Shown: positions 1-12,421 of the stretch, piece after piece
Numbering within the stretch: position 1 is the stretch's first letter
How the letters are laid out: the number at the start of each line of letters is the position of its first letter
Assembly (NCBI RefSeq): GCF_003814555.1
Contig: NZ_RKQN01000002.1
Coordinates: 372,001-436,000 of the forward strand
DNA length: 64,000 nucleotides
Direction: 5' to 3'
Source: Vulcaniibacterium tengchongense
GTDB lineage: Bacteria; Pseudomonadota; Gammaproteobacteria; Xanthomonadales; Xanthomonadaceae
Position numbers and translations under genes: made by a program
Notes under the pieces: model-generated
The model's input: only the letters and a program-made list of their open reading frames with translations
Databases searched by the model: none
Told to the model about the DNA's origin: nothing

Positions 1-379
1 TGCCCAGATCGTGCAGCAGCGCGGCCAGTCGGGCGAGCAGGCGGACGTCCTCGCCGTTGTGCCAGTCGTCCTCGTCCTCGCGACGCAGCACGTCGCGAGC
101 GGTGGTGTTGGTCGGAACCGCACCCTCCGCGTTGAAGCGGCGGGCGTCGCCTACGATCCACAGCAACTCGGTATGGTCGCGCCCGCGGATCCAGTGGCAG
201 GCCACAGCGGTGTTCTTGCGCGCGGTCTTGCGCAGAAGCTTGCGCAAGGTGGCCAGCCCCACCTCGGTGATGGCCGTCTGCCAGGTGCGCTCGCCGCGGC
301 GCTCGGCGAACTGGTCGAGGATGCGGCGGGTTTCGACCAAGGCACGCTTGTCGCACTCGCAGACCAGCAGCACGTTCAT
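1..379 (-). CDS. cas3: Type I-F Cas3 (Cas2-Cas3 fusion), N-terminal fragment cut by the window edge
   Basis: Only the first 126 codons are inside the window; the gene continues past base 1. The ATG at 377-379 overlaps the cas1 stop by four bases (ATGA), so the two are translationally coupled. The first ~95 residues look like the Cas2 domain that type I-F carries fused to Cas3 (start MNVLLVCECD, then a basic helix and a GRDHTELLWIVGD strand). Residues 119-126 (AALLHDLG) are the start of the HD nuclease domain, with His123-Asp124 as the first metal ligands. In type I-F the fusion joins Cas1 for spacer acquisition and is recruited by Csy1-4 to degrade targets. The csy genes and the cognate array should lie to the left, outside the window. 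Identity is strong; whether the rest is intact cannot be seen. Confidence 0.9.
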   Translation of the reverse strand, partial: MNVLLVCECDKRALVETRRILDQFAERRGERTWQTAITEVGLATLRKLLRKTARKNTAVACHWIRGRDHTELLWIVGDARRFNAEGAVPTNTTARDVLRREDEDDWHNGEDVRLLARLAALLHDLG

Positions 380-1371
380 GCCGACTGCTCCTGCGCCGGG
401 ACGGCCTGCGCTGCGATTTCCAGCGCTACGGCCTTGGCGGTGTCGATCATGAAGTCCAGCGCTTCGCTGCGCGCCAACGCTTCGATGCAGTTGCGGCGGA
501 ACTGCTGCTCGTCGTCGCCGCGCATTGCCGACAGGAACGCTTGTGGCAGGATGGTGGCGTCCTTGACCAGGTCGGCGACGTCGAAGACCAAGCCGCCGCG
601 CCGGGTCTTGCCGTGCAGCACCGCCAGCCCGTGCGGCAACCCCAGTACCCAGCAGGCCGTCGCGCCGAGGCCGTAGGCCAGGTAGTTGCCGTGGTCGAGG
701 AAGCGGTTGGCCGGGTCGGTGCCGGTGCCGCGCTTGGCGCGGAGGAAATCGCCGTAACCGACGGTATCCGCCGCCAGCTTGAACAATGCCTTGCTCAGCC
801 GCGCCTCCTCGGTCAGCAAGGCCGTGGTGTCCTGCGCCAGCGTCACCGCCTGCCGGCTGCGCTCCACCAGCGCCTGGAGCCTGCCGGCGTCGGCGGCGAA
901 ACCGGCCTCGCGCAAGTGCCGGTGTGGCCATTGCGCTTGCAGGCGTGCGAGGCGGGAAAGCTGGAAGGCCCGCGCGGCCGCCAGGCGCAGGCTGTCGTCG
1001 AACCAGAATTTCACCCAGGCCTGCAGGTACTCGGTGGGCCGATACTCGCTCTGCGGCGAGAACCACACCGCTTCCATGTCCCTCTCATTGGCCGAGAACA
1101 ACGGCGTGCCGCCCCCGCCACAGAAGCCCACCAGTACGCCAGCTTTGGCCAGTTCGCGCACTGCCGCCTGGGTGATGGACGTGCCGGTCCCCAGCAACAG
1201 GCAGGTCGTGTTGGCGATCGGGATGTTCCAGTACAACTGGCGCTTGCCCCCGTCGGTGACGTACTCGACGCGTCCGCCGTTGACCAGCACCCGGCAATGC
1301 TCCAGGTAGTACAGGTTCGCGCGCTTGGAATGCAGGATCGTCTTCAGATCCGAGGGCGACAAATCGTTCAT
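376..1371 (-). CDS. cas1: CRISPR-associated endonuclease Cas1, subtype I-F
   Basis: A 331-residue integrase that inserts new spacers into the CRISPR array together with the Cas2 domain of Cas3. The sequence closely follows the Pseudomonas I-F Cas1 family from end to end (NDLSPSDLKTILHSKRANLY at the start, NRFLDHGNYLAYGL in the middle). The metal ligands are all visible: Glu189 in TEEARLSK, His253 in VLHGKTRRGG, and Asp264/Asp267 in LVFDVADLVKD. The start at 1371 has a good Shine-Dalgarno run (GGGGGAG, 7 bases upstream), and length is normal for the family. It is the first gene of the operon and is divergent from hemC across 286 bases, which must hold both promoters. No array with a I-F (28-nt) repeat is seen in the window. 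Confidence 0.95.
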   Translation of the reverse strand: MNDLSPSDLKTILHSKRANLYYLEHCRVLVNGGRVEYVTDGGKRQLYWNIPIANTTCLLLGTGTSITQAAVRELAKAGVLVGFCGGGGTPLFSANERDMEAVWFSPQSEYRPTEYLQAWVKFWFDDSLRLAAARAFQLSRLARLQAQWPHRHLREAGFAADAGRLQALVERSRQAVTLAQDTTALLTEEARLSKALFKLAADTVGYGDFLRAKRGTGTDPANRFLDHGNYLAYGLGATACWVLGLPHGLAVLHGKTRRGGLVFDVADLVKDATILPQAFLSAMRGDDEQQFRRNCIEALARSEALDFMIDTAKAVALEIAAQAVPAQEQSA

Positions 1372-2806: not shown

Positions 2807-3505
2807 TCAGAACCGGCGGCGCAGCTCGATCGTGCTTTCCGCGGTCTCGCTGCCGCCGCCGCTCTGGGTGTCGTGGCGGATCGCGAAGTCGCTCTCCAGC
2901 GTCCAGTTCGGCCACAGGTTCACGTCCAGGCTGACCGACTGCTTGACGAAGGCCTCGCCGTGGCCGCTTTCGAACTGCACGCGCTGGGTCCAGCGCGCGC
3001 GCTCGCCGAACCGCTGGCCGAAGTTCAGTTCGCCGCGGAACACCGCGCCGGGGCGGTTGATGCCGTCGTCGTGCAGCGGCGCCAAGCGGTAGCCGGCGCC
3101 GAGCTTGAGGCCGAGCTCGGTGGGGCCGTTGCGCAGGGCCTGCACGCCGAAGCGGCCGCCGATGCGGTAGTCGTTGGAGTACAGCTCGCGCGACTCGCGC
3201 GGCGTCGCCGGCGCGCTCAGCGCGGCGTAGCGCTGGCTGCCGGGCAGCGGCGGCGGCGCCTCGCGCCGGGCGGGGATGATCGGGTCACGCGGCGGCGCCA
3301 GCGCCAGGCGCCATTCCTCGTCGCCGCAGCGGGTGGAGAAGCAGTACAGCCGCATCTGCGCCGGATCGCTCGCGATCGCGATCAGCGTCGGGTCGCCGGT
3401 GACGACCGGCAGGGGCATGGTGACGAACGGCCCGCTCAGCAGGGCGTACGCGAGGGCGCCGAGCATGGTTGGACGGGTCTGCGGACTGGCCCCGGATGAT
3501 GCCAT
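2807..3505 (-). CDS. DUF481-type outer-membrane beta-barrel protein
   Basis: A 232-residue protein ending in alternating aromatic/hydrophobic strands and a C-terminal Phe (ELRRRF), the usual signature for insertion by the BAM machinery. The second half resembles the DUF481 (YdiY, salt-induced outer-membrane protein) family: a YRIGGRFGVQ strand, a GLKLGAGYRLA strand, and a terminal series of paired strands. The N-terminus is a hydrophobic signal-like stretch (LGALAYALLSG). The start at 3505 was preferred because it puts an Arg before that stretch; an ATG at 3464-3466 would remove all positive charge. Neither start has a clear ribosome site. Function is unknown. It lies between hemC and the first CRISPR array with no apparent operon partner. 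Confidence 0.65.
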   Translation of the reverse strand: MASSGASPQTRPTMLGALAYALLSGPFVTMPLPVVTGDPTLIAIASDPAQMRLYCFSTRCGDEEWRLALAPPRDPIIPARREAPPPLPGSQRYAALSAPATPRESRELYSNDYRIGGRFGVQALRNGPTELGLKLGAGYRLAPLHDDGINRPGAVFRGELNFGQRFGERARWTQRVQFESGHGEAFVKQSVSLDVNLWPNWTLESDFAIRHDTQSGGGSETAESTIELRRRF

Positions 3506-3548
3506 GAAACCGGTTACAGGCGCAGCCCGCCGTGCGGCACCGGTCACA

Positions 3549-4008
3549 TTCCGCTCAGCCGAGCGCGTGGAGTGAAAACCGTGCCAGCCTGTACGAGGTC
3601 GAAGCAAGGCCCGGTCGCGCCTTCACGGCGCGCGGATTGAAACGGGTTCGGCTCGCTGTCCGCGCAGCCGCCCCACGTCGCGCCATCACGCACGCGCCGC
3701 GGATGCGCACCTGGATGATCCGTCGCACCCTTGCGGGCGCGCGGATTCAAACAACGCGGAGCAGATCGACGGCCTGCCGCCGCTCGAGTCGCGCCCTCAC
3801 GGACGCGGATGGAAACGGCCGGTTAGGCTTGCCTTCGTCGCCGGCGCCAGGGCGCGCCCTTACGGGCGCGCGGATTGAAACGCGCTCGAGCCTGCGACCC
3901 GCACGGCGCAGGTGGTCGCGTCCTCGCGGGAACGCGGATCGAAACCGGCACGAGGTGCGCGGCGGGTACACGCGCGATGGGGTCGCGCCCTCGCGGATGG
4001 ACAGGAAC
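3549..4008 (+). CRISPR. Degenerate CRISPR array (31-nt, type I-C-like repeat), eight repeat remnants
   Basis: Eight diverged copies of a ~31-base repeat lie at 3549-3579, 3614-3643, 3677-3710, 3722-3752, 3788-3816, 3851-3881, 3915-3945 and 3982-4008. The best-kept parts are the 5' GTCGCGCC, a GC-rich inverted repeat, and the 3' GGATTGAAAC. The gaps are unique and spacer-sized (34, 33, 11, 35, 34, 33 and 36 bases), so the period is ~65. The 11-base gap suggests a deletion inside one spacer. No two repeats are identical, unlike a living array. The repeat resembles type I-C repeats known from Xanthomonas, not the I-F repeat expected for the nearby cas1. No I-C cas genes are in the window. It fills the region between the DUF481 gene and soeC, where no gene is seen. 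Confidence 0.8.
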
Positions 4009-4047
4009 GAGCCGGTCGCTTCCACGCCTTCCTGGCGACGCCGCGCC

Positions 4048-5025
4048 TCAGTAATACAGCGTGACCAGATGCCGCGCCTGGGCGAAGAACAGCCAGCGCT
4101 CGACCAGGGTGCCCAGCAGCGTGGCCAACGCCGCCAGCGCGAACACCGGCCCGGCCAGCTCCGGCAGCGCCCAGGCCAGCCAGGCGGCGAACGCCGGCAC
4201 CGCCGCGAACAACAGCACCGCCAGCGCGCGCAGCGGCCGCGCGTGGCGGCGCGCCAGCACGTAACCCATCTCGCGGGTCAGGTAGTTGGCCTCGGTATGC
4301 GGGCGCTCGAACACGGCGACCTCGCGCCCCGGCAGGCCGACTGCGTCGCCACGATCGGCGCCGAGCGGTTGCCGGTCGATGCGATGCCAATAGGCCAGCT
4401 TCAGCGCGGCGGCGAGCGCGGCCAGCGCGAAGGTGACCAGCAGGTTGAACGCCAGCGCCGCGTCGGACAGCGCCGCCCAGTTCGCCAGCGCCATCAGCAC
4501 CATCCAGCCGCCGAGCAAGGCGAAGGCGAAGTACACCGGCACCACCAGCGCCTGCCGCCACGCCGGGACCGGCTTCAGCGAGGCGTAGATCATCGCCGTG
4601 CAGGCCACCGTGCCGGCGGACAGCAGCATCGTCGCCGCGGCGAGCGTAGGCACCAGCGCGCCCTGCAACGGCGCATGGGAGCCGAGGAACGTGGGCGCGG
4701 CCACCGCCGCCAGCAGCGCCAGCACGGCCAGCGCGGTCGCCACCGCCAGCACGCCCTCGCGCGACAGCCACGAGGTGCGCCACTGCGAGAACGCGCGCCA
4801 GGCGCGCGCCGGCCTGCCGAGGTGGAACAGCGAGCTCACCAGCCCGGCCGTGGTCAACACGAAGCCGGTCGCCAGCAGCACCGCCCACAGCAGCGGCAGC
4901 ACGCCCTGCTGGGGCGGCCGTCCCTGCGCGTACGGCAGCAGGATCAGCGCGCCGGTCCACAGCAGCAGGCCGTAGCCGGCGCCGGAGAGCGTGGTGAAGA
5001 GCAGGACGGAGAAGGCGGGATGCAT
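4048..5025 (-). CDS. soeC: NrfD/DmsC-type membrane anchor of a molybdopterin oxidoreductase (probable SoeC)
   Basis: A 325-residue integral membrane protein with about eight hydrophobic helices, for example LLFTTLSGAGYGLLLWTGAL near the start. It matches the DmsC-type anchor that exchanges electrons with the quinone pool for a cytoplasmic Mo/Fe-S module. The motif SSLFHLGRPARAW, typical of the family, follows the third helix. It is last in the minus-strand operon after soeA, a small protein and soeB. The start at 5025 begins right at the first helix. A longer in-frame start at 5097 would add 24 polar residues and lacks support. The 183-base gap after soeB is longer than the other junctions and is GC-rich with no gene. 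The SoeC label rests on the partner proteins; DmsC-like anchor is the safer name. Confidence 0.75.
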   Translation of the reverse strand: MHPAFSVLLFTTLSGAGYGLLLWTGALILLPYAQGRPPQQGVLPLLWAVLLATGFVLTTAGLVSSLFHLGRPARAWRAFSQWRTSWLSREGVLAVATALAVLALLAAVAAPTFLGSHAPLQGALVPTLAAATMLLSAGTVACTAMIYASLKPVPAWRQALVVPVYFAFALLGGWMVLMALANWAALSDAALAFNLLVTFALAALAAALKLAYWHRIDRQPLGADRGDAVGLPGREVAVFERPHTEANYLTREMGYVLARRHARPLRALAVLLFAAVPAFAAWLAWALPELAGPVFALAALATLLGTLVERWLFFAQARHLVTLYY

Positions 5026-5208
5026 GCGCTGGTCAGCAAATGCCGCGCCGGTCCCCGCGCACGCGGGGCGGGGAACCTGCGCTTGCGGGTTGCGCAACGG
5101 GGCCTTGGCCGGGCCGGCCCGCCGGCCGCGGCAGGCGGCGGGACGGCAGGTCCTTGGCTCCGCTCGCGCGGCGGTCCACAGCGGCGGGATGGAAAACGAG
5201 GGGAAGGC

Positions 5209-5967
5209 TCATCGCGACAGCACGCGGTCGAGCCAGCGCAGCAGCGGCGGCAGCGCGGCGGTGTCGAGCGGCTCCTCGGCGGGGGCGGCGTCCTGGCCGG
5301 CGCGGCGCGGCCGCGGCGGCAGGTACTTGTTGACCGGCCGGTAGCCCAGCTGCGGCAGCAGGTCGACGCCGCCGCGCTCGGCCACCAGCCTCGACACCGG
5401 CGAGTCCGGGTCGCCGAGGTCGCCGAAGTGGCGCGCGCGGGTCGGGCAGGCCTGCACGCAGGCCGGCTGGCGCTCGGCCTCGGGCAGGTTCTCGTTGTAG
5501 ATGCGGTCGATGCACAGCGTGCATTTCTTCATCACGCCCTCGACCGCGCTGTACTCGCGCGCGCCGTAGGGGCAGGCCCAGGAGCACAGCTTGCAGCCGA
5601 TGCACTTGTCCTCGTCGACCAGCACGATGCCATCCTCGGCGCGCTTGTAGCTGGCGCCGGTCGGGCACACGGTGACGCAGGCGGGGGTCTCGCAATGCAG
5701 GCACGAGCGCGGGAAGTGCAGCGTGCCCGCCGGCTGCGCCGGCGCATCGCCGCACGCGGGCGCCGCCGCCACCTCGTAGCTGTGCACGCGGTTGAACCAC
5801 ACGCCCGAGGGCTGCCCGCCGTAGGGCTGCTCGTCGGGCAGCGGCGCGGCGAAGCCGCCGGCGTTCCATTCCTTGCAGCTGACCGCGCAGGCATGGCAGC
5901 CGACGCAGGTGTCCAGGTCGATCACCAGGCCGAGCTTCTTCTTCGACGGCGGCGGCAGCGCGGTCAT
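5209..5967 (-). CDS. soeB: Four-cluster ferredoxin subunit (probable SoeB)
   Basis: A 252-residue iron-sulfur protein that passes electrons between the molybdenum subunit and the membrane anchor. Four cysteine sets for [4Fe-4S] clusters are visible: CVGCHACAVSC near residue 18, CLHCETPACVTVCP, CIGCKLCSWACP, and CTLC followed by CVQACP. This is the DmsB/SoeB arrangement. There is no Tat or Sec signal, so the protein is cytoplasmic. The ATG at 5967 overlaps the stop of the upstream 69-residue gene by four bases. A proline- and arginine-rich tail follows the last cluster ([10 protein letters not shown]). Its electron carrier role is secure; the natural substrate of the complex is inferred. Confidence 0.85.
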   Translation of the reverse strand: MTALPPPSKKKLGLVIDLDTCVGCHACAVSCKEWNAGGFAAPLPDEQPYGGQPSGVWFNRVHSYEVAAAPACGDAPAQPAGTLHFPRSCLHCETPACVTVCPTGASYKRAEDGIVLVDEDKCIGCKLCSWACPYGAREYSAVEGVMKKCTLCIDRIYNENLPEAERQPACVQACPTRARHFGDLGDPDSPVSRLVAERGGVDLLPQLGYRPVNKYLPPRPRRAGQDAAPAEEPLDTAALPPLLRWLDRVLSR

Positions 5968-6173
5968 CGCCGGGTGCCCCCGGCGATCAACCACACCCCC
6001 AGCGCGCACAGGGCGATGCCGAGGCTGACCCGCGGCAGCAGGCCGACCAGCGGCGGCCACGCCAGGCCGACCGGATCGAGCAGCGGGTCGAACACGCCGA
6101 ACACCAGCAGGATCGTCAGCACGAACCCGGCGGCCAGGCACAGCCAGCCGAGGAGCGAAGCCCAGGATTTCAT
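5964..6173 (-). CDS. Small two-helix membrane protein coupled to soeA and soeB
   Basis: A 69-residue protein with two hydrophobic segments, LLGWLCLAAGFVLTILLVFG and VSLGIALCALGVWLIAGG, separated by a short DPLLDPVGLAWPP loop. Both junctions are four-base ATGA overlaps: its ATG (6171-6173) overlaps the soeA stop, and its stop overlaps the soeB start. It is therefore translated in step with the enzyme subunits. I do not recognise a family. Its tight placement suggests an assembly factor or an accessory membrane subunit of the complex, but this is inference. It is a real gene rather than a chance frame because the adjacent starts depend on it. Confidence 0.75.
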   Translation of the reverse strand: MKSWASLLGWLCLAAGFVLTILLVFGVFDPLLDPVGLAWPPLVGLLPRVSLGIALCALGVWLIAGGTRR

Positions 6174-9100
6174 CGGCGCGTCCCCGTGCGGAATTCGGCG
6201 CCGTAGCGCAGCGGCCCCGGCGGCGCCTCGCCCAGCGGCAGCGGCGCGAACTGCGGCGCGCTCGCGTCCGCGGGCGCGGCCTTGGCGATGCGCACGCGCA
6301 GGTCGAACCAGGCCGCCTGGCCGGTGACCGGGTCGGCGTTGGCGTAGTCGCCGCGCGGGGTCAGGTCGCTGATCAGGTGGTTGAGCAGGAAGCCGCGGCG
6401 GCCCTCCGGCGCGTCCTGGTCGAGGCGCCAGGCGCCGCGGCGCTTGCCGATCGCGTTCCAGGTCCAGACCGTGTCGGGCTGCACGTTGGCCGCGAACCGG
6501 GCCTGCACGACGATGCGGCCGTGGTGCGAGCGCACCTCGACCCAGTCGCCGTCGGCAATGCCGTGGCGCGCGCCGGTGTCCGGGTGCAGGTACAGCCAGT
6601 TGCGCGCGGCGATCTGCCGCAGCCAGGCGTTCTGCGAACCCCAGGCGTGGTACATGAACATCGGCCGCTGGGTGACCGCGCTGAGCGGGAACGGATGGGC
6701 GTCGCCGCGCGCGGAGGTCGCCGGCGCCCCGCCCTCTCCCCGCTCCTCTCCCGCAAGCGGGCGGGACGGCGCGGCCGCGCTGCGGGCGTCGCTTCGACCG
6801 CCCTCGTTCCGGTCCGGGCGGTGCGCGGCTTCGAGTTGCGCCGATTCCAGGGGCTCGTACCAGATCGGCAACGGGTCGAAGTACGTCGCCAGCCGTTCGC
6901 GGTGCTGCGGCGGCGGTTGCACCGCGCCGTGCCCCTGCGCGGCCAGGCGGAACCGCTGCAACGGCTCGGCGTAGAGCTGCAGCGCGATCGGCGCGGCGGT
7001 GCCGAGGAAGCCCATGCGCTGCGCCCAGTCCAGGTAGCCGCGGTTGGCCATCTTGAAGTAGCGCGCGTGCTCGGGGATCTCGCTGCGCCAGAAGCCGCCG
7101 TGCTCGACGTAGCGCGCCAGCTGCTGCGGGTTCGGCGGGCCCTTGGCCTCCAGCGCGCCGTCGGCGCCGCGCCAGCCGGCGAGCAGGCCCACGCCCGGCG
7201 CGCGCTCGTGGCGGACGATGTAGTCGGCGTAGTCGCGGTACTTCGGCGAGCCGTCCTCGTTCACCAGGCCGGGCAAGCCCAGCCGCGCGCCGAGCTCGAT
7301 CAGCACCGACTGGAAGCCGCGCACGTCGCGGCCTTCCATCTGCGCGGCGGGATCGAGCACGGGATGGCGGATCGCGTCGGCGGCGCCGTCGGCGTCGGAG
7401 ATCGGCCGGTCGAGCAGGCTGATCGCGTCGAACCGCTCCAGGTAGGTGGTGTCCGGCAGCACCAGGTCGGCGTAGGCGACCATCTCGCTGGCGTAGGCGT
7501 CGGCGTAGACGATGCGCGGGATCCGGTATTCGCCGTGCTCGTCCTTGTCGGTGAGCCAGCGGATCGTCTCGGCGGTGTTCATCGCCGAGTTCCAGCTCAT
7601 GTTCGCCATGAACATCAGCAGCGTGTCGATCCGGTACGGATCGCCGGCCCAGGCGTTGCGGATCACCGTGTGCATCAGCCCGTGCGCGCTGAGCGGATAG
7701 GCCCAGGAGAACGCGTGGTCGATGCGGCGCGGGCGGCCTTCGGCGTCGACCAGCAGGTCCTCCGGGCCGTGCACGAAGCCCAGCGGCGGCGCGTCGAGCG
7801 TGCCGTCCTCGCGGCGCGCGCGGCCGGGGCGGTTCGGCGGCGGCACCGGCTTCGGGTACGGCGGCTGGTAGCGGAACGACCCGGGCGCATCGACCGCGCC
7901 GAGCAGCAGCTGCAGCACGTGCAACGCGCGGCAGGTGTGGAAGCCGTTGCTGTGCGCGCTGATCCCGCGCATCGCGTGCATCGCCACCGGGCGGCCGACC
8001 ATCTCGGCATGCGCGCGGCCCCAGGCGTCGGTCCAGGGAATCGGCAGGCGCAGGTTCGAGTCGAACGCGGCCTGGGCCAGCTCGCGCGCGATCCGGCGGA
8101 TGGTCTCGGCCGGGACGCCGCAGCGCTCGGCGACGGCCTCGGGGGCGTACTGCGGGTCGAGGTAGCGTTCGGCCAGCAGCTGGAACACCGGCACGGCGCG
8201 GCGGCCGTCGGGCAGCGCGTATTCGCCGACCACCGCGGGCGAGAGGCCGATCGCGTCGGCGGGCGCGAGGGCGCCGCGGCCCTGGTCCTCGCGGCCCTCG
8301 CCCCGGCCGCCTCCCGCAAACGGGCGAGGCGGCCCGCCGGGCGCGCCATGGGAATCGTGTGGCGACCCGTCGCGGGCTCCGCTCGCGGGAGCGGGATCGG
8401 GGCGGGGGCGCGCGCCGCGGTCCCAGCACAACGGCCGCCCCTGCGCGTCGCGCGCGAACAGCCCGTCGTCGGCCGCGCCGGGATCGCGGATCACCAGCCA
8501 GTGCGCGTCGGTGTAGCGCACCAGGTAGTCGAGGTCGATGCGGTCGGCGCGCAGCAGCTCGTGGATCAGCGCGAACGCGAACAGGCCGTCGGTGCCGGGG
8601 CGGATGCCGATCCATTCGTCGGCGATCGCGCCGTAGCCGCTGCGCACCGGGTTCACCGCGACGATCTTGGCGCCGCGCGCCTTCAGCCTGCCCAGGCCGA
8701 GCTTGATCGGGTTGGAATCGTGGTCCTCGGCCACGCCCCACAGCATCAGGTAGCGGGTGTGCTCCCAGTCCGGCTCGCCGAACTCCCAGAAGCTGCCGCC
8801 GAGCGTGTACAGCCCGCCGGCGGCCATGTTGACCGAGCAGAAGCCGCCGTGCGCGGCGTAGTTCACGGTGCCGAACTGTTGCGCCCACCAGCCGGTCAGC
8901 GCCTGGCTCTGGTCGCGCCCGGTGAAGAAGGCCAGCTCGTCGGGGTTGCGCTCGCGGATCGGCTTCAGCCACGAGGTCGCGATCTCCAGGGCCTCGTCCC
9001 ATTCGATCTCGCGGAACTCGCCGGACCCGCGCTCGCCCACCCGCAGCAGCGGCTTGCGCAGCCGCGCCGGCGAGTAGTGCTGCATGATCCCGGCCGAGCC

Positions 9101-10855: not shown

Positions 10856-11824
10856 ATGGAACGCATCGAACGCATCCACGCCCTGCACCGCATCCTCAGC
10901 GCCGCGCGCTACCCGGTCACCGTGCAGCGCCTGCAGGAGGACCTGGAATGCTCGCGCGCCACGGTCTACCGCGACCTGGCCTACCTGCGCGACTACCTGA
11001 TGGCGCCGGTGGTCGGCAACGGCGAGGCCGGCTTCCGCTACGACCCGAGCGAGGGCGAGCGCTTCGAGCTGCCCGGCCTGTGGCTGAGCTCGGAGGAGCT
11101 GTACGCCCTGCTCGCCGCGCAGCAGCTGCTGGTGCGCAGCGGCGGCGGGGTGCTGTCGAACGCGCTGGCGCCGCTGCAGCACCGGATCGAGAAGCTGCTG
11201 GACGAGCACGCCGGCGGCCGCCGGGTGCCGGTGGAGCGCGTGCGCGTGATCCCGCACCGCACGCGGCGCCTGGACGAGCCCGCGTTCCGCACCGTCGCCA
11301 CCGCCGTGCTCGACCGCAAGCGCCTGGCGTTCGAGTACCGCGCCCGCTCCACCGACGAGAAGACCCGGCGCACGGTCTCGCCGCAGCGCCTGACCCATTA
11401 CCGCGAGAACTGGTACCTCGACGCCTGGGACCACGACCGCGAGGCGTTGCGCAGCTTCGCGGTGGACCGGATCGGCGCCGCGCGGCGCCTGGACGAGCCG
11501 GCCCAGGACGTGCCCGACGAGGAACTGGACCGGCAGCTCGCCTCCAGCTACGGCATCTTCTCCGGCGAGCCCAAGGGCTGGGCGACGATCGTGTTCAGCG
11601 CCAAGGCCGCGCGCTGGGTCGCCGACGAGCACTGGCATTCGCAGCAGCAGGGCCGCTTCCTCGCCGACGGCCGCTACGAGCTCAAGGTGCCCTACAGCGC
11701 CGGCCGCGAGCTGCTGATGGACGTGATGCACTACGGCGCGGACGCCGAGATCGTCGAACCGGCCTCGCTGCGCGAGCAGGCGCGTGCGCTGCTGCAGCTG
11801 GCGCTGAGCAACTACGACCGCTGA
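10856..11824 (+). CDS. HTH plus WYL-domain transcriptional regulator (YafY type)
   Basis: A 322-residue cytosolic regulator. Residues 1-60 form a winged helix-turn-helix (RIERIHALHRILSAARYPVT, then a CSRATVYRDLAYLRDYL recognition helix). Residues ~140-205 form a WYL domain: a YRARST strand, then RTVSPQRLTHYRENWYLDAW and the FAVDRIGAARRL end. A C-terminal WCX-like domain follows (KAARWVADEHWHS, then LLMDVMHYGADAEIVEPASL). WYL domains bind nucleic-acid or small ligands, and several control CRISPR or anti-phage systems. This gene lies 128 bases before the second degenerate CRISPR array, which may be coincidence. It appears monocistronic, 89 bases after pagL. Confidence 0.85.
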   Translation: MERIERIHALHRILSAARYPVTVQRLQEDLECSRATVYRDLAYLRDYLMAPVVGNGEAGFRYDPSEGERFELPGLWLSSEELYALLAAQQLLVRSGGGVLSNALAPLQHRIEKLLDEHAGGRRVPVERVRVIPHRTRRLDEPAFRTVATAVLDRKRLAFEYRARSTDEKTRRTVSPQRLTHYRENWYLDAWDHDREALRSFAVDRIGAARRLDEPAQDVPDEELDRQLASSYGIFSGEPKGWATIVFSAKAARWVADEHWHSQQQGRFLADGRYELKVPYSAGRELLMDVMHYGADAEIVEPASLREQARALLQLALSNYDR

Positions 11825-11952: not shown

Positions 11953-12289
11953 GAGGCCCCGGCGCGGGCGCGGCGATTGAAGCGGGTCGGCCTCGTTCCG
12001 CGGCACGGCCGGCGAGGTCGCGCCCTTGGGGGGGTGCGGACTAAAACCTGGTCAGCCGTGTACTGGCCGATGCGCCTGGCGGGCGCGGGTGAAACGATGC
12101 AGCCGATTGCGCTGGTCGCGTATCCGGTCCGTCGCGCCTGGCGGGCGCGCGGATTGAAACGCGTCATCCGTGTCCGCTTGCCGGCACCTGCAGGCGTCGC
12201 GCCCTCGCGGGTGCGCGGATCGGGACAACGACGGTGGGCGGCCTACCCGGAAGGCCGGCGTCGCGCCCCCGCGGGCGCGGTGCCTGGAC
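11953..12289 (+). CRISPR. Second degenerate CRISPR array, same 31-nt repeat family, six remnants
   Basis: Repeat remnants lie at 11953-11983, 12017-12047, 12069-12095, 12131-12160, 12196-12226 and 12260-12289. Gaps are 33, 21, 35, 35 and 33 bases of unrelated sequence, again a ~64-base period. The 12131 copy is best kept (GTCGCGCCTGGCGGGCGCGC, then GGATTGAAAC). Others retain the stem but have lost the GAAAC end, for example CGGGAC at 12226. The family and orientation are the same as the array 8 kb to the left. No cas gene adjoins it. The array fills most of the gene-free stretch 11825-12421; outside the array that stretch shows no gene or clear promoter. Confidence 0.75.
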
Positions 12290-12421
12290 GCGGGCGCCGC
12301 ATGGCGCCGCTCGCAGGCGGCTGCCGGATCCCGCCCGGGGCGTTCTCGCGCGCTTGCGCGCGTCGCATCCCCTGAGATGTCGTCCGGGCACGTTGGGCGC
12401 CCGCCCAAGGGGAGCCCGAGC

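What the first reader, a model, noticed from the sequence alone, without database searches (positions are those of the whole stretch)
3549..4008. Orphan, decaying CRISPR array whose repeat does not match the adjacent I-F system
Eight ~31-base repeats with a regular ~65-base period and unique 33-36-base spacers are seen directly, ending GGATTGAAAC. Type I-F uses a different 28-base repeat, and the repeat here resembles type I-C. Every copy differs, yet the GC stem and GAAAC end are the best-kept parts. This suggests a fossil of a lost I-C system next to a present I-F operon, or repeats kept for another role.
Basis: partly seen in the sequence, partly recalled or inferred. Interest (0 to 1): 0.7.

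Follow-up and report, generated by a model that had tools for sequence, protein, structure and literature searches.

The report
Decayed remnants of a lost CRISPR
Two short, worn-out CRISPR memory arrays of type I-C survive in this bacterium without any I-C machinery, and one stored spacer can still be traced to the traC gene of conjugative plasmids; it is a clear genomic fossil, not a new system.

Summary
The array is real. Window 3548-4008 holds eight degenerate ~31-nt units with a ~65-nt period. A chain scan with an intact relative's repeat scores 29 there; 60 simulated 64-kb sequences never exceed 4. A covariance model of the 14 units finds no third cluster in the 3.58-Mb genome. The consensus is 29/31 identical to the intact type I-C repeat of two family members, which has the same 65/66-nt period. 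One spacer (3753-3787) matches traC/ArdC of conjugative plasmids at 32/35 positions, with TTC directly 5', the confirmed I-C PAM of Xanthomonas oryzae. cas5c, cas7c, cas8c and cas1c are absent; the adjacent intact I-F system uses a different 28-nt repeat. Decay looks neutral: stem pairing equals shuffled expectation, conservation is even along the repeat, mutations drift toward the genome's GC. The nearest Lysobacter relatives have the same genes in the same order, short gaps and no arrays. Best reading: dead remnants of a lost I-C system. How two arrays came to lie 8 kb apart is unresolved. New member of a known kind; modest interest.

The parts
3548..4008 (+). Array 1: eight degenerate I-C-type repeat units with seven spacers, between a DUF481 gene and dmsC
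3753..3787 (+). Spacer 4 of array 1; matches plasmid traC/ArdC genes at 32/35, protospacer preceded by TTC
   Evidence: decoy
3851..3881 (+). One of the best-kept repeat units (28/31 to consensus; best covariance-model score)
11953..12290 (+).
12131..12160 (+). Best-kept unit of array 2 (29/31 to consensus)
376..1371 (-). cas1f of the resident, intact type I-F system (rest of that system lies left of the window, in L008); context, not the partner of these arrays
2807..3505 (-). DUF481 gene, left neighbour of array 1; conserved in relatives
4048..5052 (-). dmsC-like gene, right neighbour of array 1; conserved in relatives
10856..11824 (+). WYL-domain regulator, left neighbour of array 2; CRISPR-Cas loci lie downstream of its orthologue in other genera

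Best explanation
These are two dead, orphan CRISPR arrays of a type I-C system that the lineage once had. Originally the adaptation proteins of that system stored ~34-nt pieces of invading DNA, one of them from a traC/ArdC gene of a conjugative plasmid next to a TTC PAM, between copies of a 31-nt repeat. The transcript would have been cut at each hairpin by Cas5c and used by a Cas5c-Cas8c-Cas7c complex with Cas3. After the cas genes (and any recognisable leader) were lost, nothing maintained the repeats, so each copy drifted on its own. Shown: repeat type, period, spacer origin and PAM, absence of I-C cas5c/7c/8c/1c, neutral pattern of decay. Inferred: past activity, order of loss, and that no crRNA is made or used today.
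For: The repeat consensus differs from the intact repeat of G270/G231 (GTCGCGCCCTCACGGGCGCGTGGATTGAAAC, period 65/66) at 2 of 31 positions; in L116 that array lies beside cas3, cas8c, cas7c, cas4 and cas1c. The X. oryzae I-C repeat is GTCGCGTCCTCACGGGCGCGTGGATTGAAAC with PAM TTC (PMC8406640). Spacer 3753-3787 matches traC at 32/35 in pADP-1 and pMBUI2, E 3e-6 to 1e-5, with TTC directly 5'; best listed decoy hits about 0.9. No cas8c, cas7c, cas1c or cas5c in a genome rated 100% complete. Stem pairing 84.2% against 84.4% shuffled; AT-to-GC changes 2.1 times as frequent per site as GC-to-AT, 2.76 expected at the window's 73% GC. No cluster in 80 related loci, and the nearest relatives have short gaps at both sites.
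Against: No leader remnant was recognised. Only one of twelve spacers could be traced. Two arrays at separate intergenic sites 8 kb apart do not follow simply from the loss of one locus. The genome is in 16 contigs, so a missed cas gene is conceivable, and an I-C cas3 was not searched for.
Confidence: 0.93

Rival explanations
1. The repeats are degenerate but kept for another role, for example as a regulatory RNA or as crRNAs used by the resident I-F complex.
For: 14 units remain recognisable, and crRNA-like regulators with degenerate repeats exist (PMC12737573).
Against: No compensatory stem changes, no position held better than the rest (P=0.15), each unit broken differently, no I-C effector, I-F repeat and Cas6f type differ, no strong self-match of spacers in the 97 kb around.
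Confidence: 0.04
2. It is an interspersed or tandem repeat family (REP or STAR type) that only resembles CRISPR.
For: GC-rich hairpin unit in intergenic gaps; two clusters.
Against: No copies outside the two clusters above chance; unique spacers of CRISPR length; 29/31 identity to a repeat beside I-C cas genes; plasmid-derived spacer with PAM.
Confidence: 0.01
3. The arrays arrived without cas genes, as stand-alone arrays carried by a mobile element or by recombination from a relative, and never worked in this lineage.
For: Two small arrays at two conserved gaps, no cas remnants, no leader; nearest relatives lack them.
Against: No element boundaries or mobility genes were recognised next to them; stand-alone arrival at two sites needs two events.
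Confidence: 0.1

Closest known systems
Type I-C CRISPR array of Xanthomonadaceae (X. oryzae PXO99A in PMC8406640; here G270/L116, G231/L118)
   Same: 31-nt repeat (29/31 to the consensus), 65-nt period, ATTGAAAC 3' end, TTC PAM of the traceable protospacer
   Different: every copy decayed, 8 and 6 units only, no I-C cas genes, no leader recognised, two separate small arrays
Orphan or isolated CRISPR arrays (review PMC8616872)
   Same: arrays without cas genes, read as degeneration of a system
   Different: all repeats have diverged here (mean 80% to consensus), so function is unlikely; unlike the E. coli orphan I-F arrays with anti-cas spacers, no spacer here gives a convincing match to I-C cas genes
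Type I-F system of the same genome
   Same: CRISPR; its cas1f lies about 2 kb from array 1
   Different: 28-nt repeat GTTCGCTGCCGCGTAGGCAGCTCAGAAG, 60-nt period, about 67 nearly identical copies; not the source of these units

Membership tests
CRISPR array, repeat class of type I-C | direct repeats of constant length separated by unique spacers of near-constant length | tested here: met
   8 + 6 units; ten of twelve spacers 33-36 nt, two truncated; chain scores 29 and 16 against a simulated maximum of 4
CRISPR array, repeat class of type I-C | repeat sequence of the I-C class, GC hairpin and ATTGAAAC end | tested here: met
   29/31 to the intact repeat beside cas8c/cas7c in L116
CRISPR array, repeat class of type I-C | spacers from mobile elements, protospacer with PAM TTC | tested here: met
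   one of twelve spacers: traC 32/35 with TTC; the others were not traced
CRISPR array, repeat class of type I-C | leader sequence upstream | tested here: not met
   no similarity to I-C leaders of six family members; leaders diverge fast, so weak evidence; expected for a decayed array
Functional type I-C CRISPR-Cas system | cas5c, cas7c, cas8c and cas1c in the genome | tested here: not met
   no match for TIGR01876, TIGR02589, TIGR01863, TIGR03640
Functional type I-C CRISPR-Cas system | production of processed crRNA | not testable with these tools
   no expression data
Type I-F array | 28-nt I-F repeat (Rfam CRISPR-DR4) | tested here: not met
   DR4 matches lie only in L008; the units' nearest family is CRISPR-DR9, below its threshold
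Dispersed repeat family (REP/STAR) | copies scattered over the genome | tested here: not met
   only two clusters
crRNA-like regulator (CreA/CreR) | degenerate repeats of the cognate resident Cas effector, spacer partly matching a local promoter | tested here: not met
   no cognate I-C effector; no strong match of the spacers in the surrounding 97 kb

The most novel reading that the evidence does not exclude
The two same-orientation arrays in conserved gaps on both sides of the dms-WYL block are array DNA that moved to new intergenic sites without cas genes, or still give RNAs with a host role unrelated to I-C immunity.
Probability: 0.06. Interest if true: 0.6.

Novelty: new member of a known kind. 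Interest (0 to 1): 0.25.

Why it matters
It is a well-supported case of CRISPR decay in which the former system can still be typed by repeat, period and the PAM of a remnant spacer, and it records past contact with conjugative plasmids or their relatives. It suggests that array finders tuned to near-identical repeats can overlook old arrays, and adds to signs that the site after this WYL regulator receives CRISPR-Cas loci repeatedly in Lysobacteraceae.

Tried and rejected
A plain 31-mer match count at 17 or more of 31 is swamped by GC-rich background; the spacing-aware chain test replaced it. Leader similarity to six intact I-C loci: only 9-nt chance matches. Anti-cas spacers, as in E. coli orphan I-F arrays: only 13-18 nt chance-like matches to I-C cas loci. 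Spacers against phages: nothing convincing besides the ArdC gene of Caulobacter phages, 27/35 with TTC. Array 2 against plasmids: weak hits only, the best being repeat similarity to a Tistrella plasmid, which carries a clean array of a similar repeat. The large WYL-g12422 insert in Stenotrophomonas L089, suspected to be CRISPR, holds ubiD, ubiU and ubiV. Dating the decay by four-fold sites failed: differences are flat at 0.21-0.25 across relatives, so not informative. The long ORF 3532-6327 running through array 1 was judged a frame artefact of GC-rich sequence.

Full report
Observation. Window 3548-4008 contains eight degenerate copies of a 31-nt unit on the + strand, with end-to-end steps of about 63-68 nt except one of about 41 caused by a shortened spacer. 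Spacers are unique; six of seven are 33-36 nt. To avoid circularity I scored the window with the intact repeat of a relative, chaining units 62-68 nt apart: array 1 scores 29, a second cluster scores 16, 60 simulated 64-kb sequences reach at most 4, and the rest of the window reaches 1.

A second array. A covariance model of all 14 units (R1) places 11 of the 14 at E below 0.01 and nothing else in the 3.58-Mb genome at that level; the most decayed units mingle with background hits (one unit, 12069-12095, is not listed there). The units are clustered, not dispersed.

What the repeat is. The unit consensus GTCGCGCCCTCGCGGGCGCGCGGATTGAAAC differs at 2 of 31 positions from the intact repeat of two family members (G270, G231), which has a period of 65 or 66 nt. 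In L116 (G270) that array lies next to cas3, cas8c, cas7c, cas4 and cas1c, a type I-C operon. The functional I-C array of Xanthomonas oryzae has GTCGCGTCCTCACGGGCGCGTGGATTGAAAC and the PAM TTC (PMC8406640). Rfam's nearest family is CRISPR-DR9, below its curated threshold.

A traceable spacer. Spacer 4 of array 1 (3753-3787) matches the traC gene of plasmids such as pADP-1 (conjugative, IncP) and pMBUI2 (mobilizable) at 32 of 35 positions, E 3e-6 to 1e-5, and a homologous gene on a Comamonas plasmid at 31 of 35. The matched stretch of pADP-1 encodes VFNGEQIDGLP, in a protein whose N-terminal part is the ArdcN domain. In all four targets read, TTC stands directly 5' of the protospacer. These four are not independent: TTC is the codon of a conserved phenylalanine, so this is one PAM observation, not four. 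The reversed query gives E about 0.9 in its best listed hits.

No machinery. No match to cas8c, cas7c, cas5c or cas1c exists in the genome, which is rated 100% complete. The adjacent system is I-F (cas1f, cas3f, csy1-4) with about 67 nearly identical 28-nt repeats of another sequence.

Decay. Units average 80% identity to their consensus. Stem pairs are kept in 84.2% of cells, against 84.4% after shuffling partners. Conservation along the repeat is not significantly uneven (P=0.15), GAAAC is kept like the average, and changes run toward G/C 2.1 times as often per site as away from it, near the 2.8 expected at 73% GC. This is what unselected drift gives. Measured against the intact foreign repeat the unevenness is significant, but that comes mainly from positions 12 and 21, where the local ancestor probably differed.

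Neighbourhood. The order hemC, DUF481, dmsC, dmsB, dmsA, WYL, a small gene and an oligopeptidase-like gene is shared with Lysobacter relatives (DUF481, DmsC and WYL by Pfam; the other names by recognition). In the five nearest relatives compared (L022, L023, L029, L030, L032) the DUF481 and dmsC matches are about 42-62 bp apart and WYL to the next gene about 200-360 bp, against about 530 and 600 bp here. None of 80 related loci carries a cluster of these units. So the arrays are extra DNA at two conserved gaps, or were lost cleanly in the relatives. In two members of another genus (G004, G055) cas8c lies a few kb downstream of the same WYL gene, with a patatin-like gene directly after WYL; the fuller I-C operon was checked for G004. 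In Vulcaniibacterium thermophilum a cas1f lies there. The G004 and G055 repeats differ from the fossil, so this shows a recurrent location, not an orthologous locus. It makes a former I-C locus at array 2 plausible; array 1 is not explained by it.

Not unique. Another family member without cas8c (G057) has at least three decayed units of this class, two of them 65 nt apart.

Conclusion. The arrays are best read as dead remnants of a lost I-C system. Past immunity is inferred; present inactivity is inferred from missing cas genes and neutral decay, not measured.

Noticed in passing
L008:14625-14710 (left of the window, genome C2 about 368625-368710): Between cas3f and csy1 of the I-F locus lies a mini-array: an I-F type repeat unlike the main array's, a 30-nt spacer and a degenerate repeat. 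The spacer matches 17 of the first 21 nt of L008:14554-14574, which is preceded by CC, in the same intergenic region; this looks like a cas-autoregulating CreR RNA.
   Followed up: partly
window 10856-11824; L104, L131, L046: The region downstream of this WYL regulator carries CRISPR-Cas genes in other genera: I-C in G004 and G055 (a patatin-like gene between), I-F cas1f in Vulcaniibacterium thermophilum.
   Followed up: partly
L127:2298-2620 (+); L130:2024-2118 (reverse-strand coordinates): Further decayed or isolated units of the same repeat class in other family members, one lacking cas8c (G057) and one with an intact array elsewhere (G192).
   Followed up: partly
L008:7851-7970: Two successive I-F spacers in the main array are identical (GAGATGGAGATCGATCTCGGCCAGCTCGGAAA), a spacer duplication.
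   Followed up: no
L124 (Caulobacter phage BL57): The ArdC-like antirestriction gene of Caulobacter phages shares the spacer's motif, 27/35 with TTC, so the original target might have been another element with an ArdC gene.
   Followed up: partly
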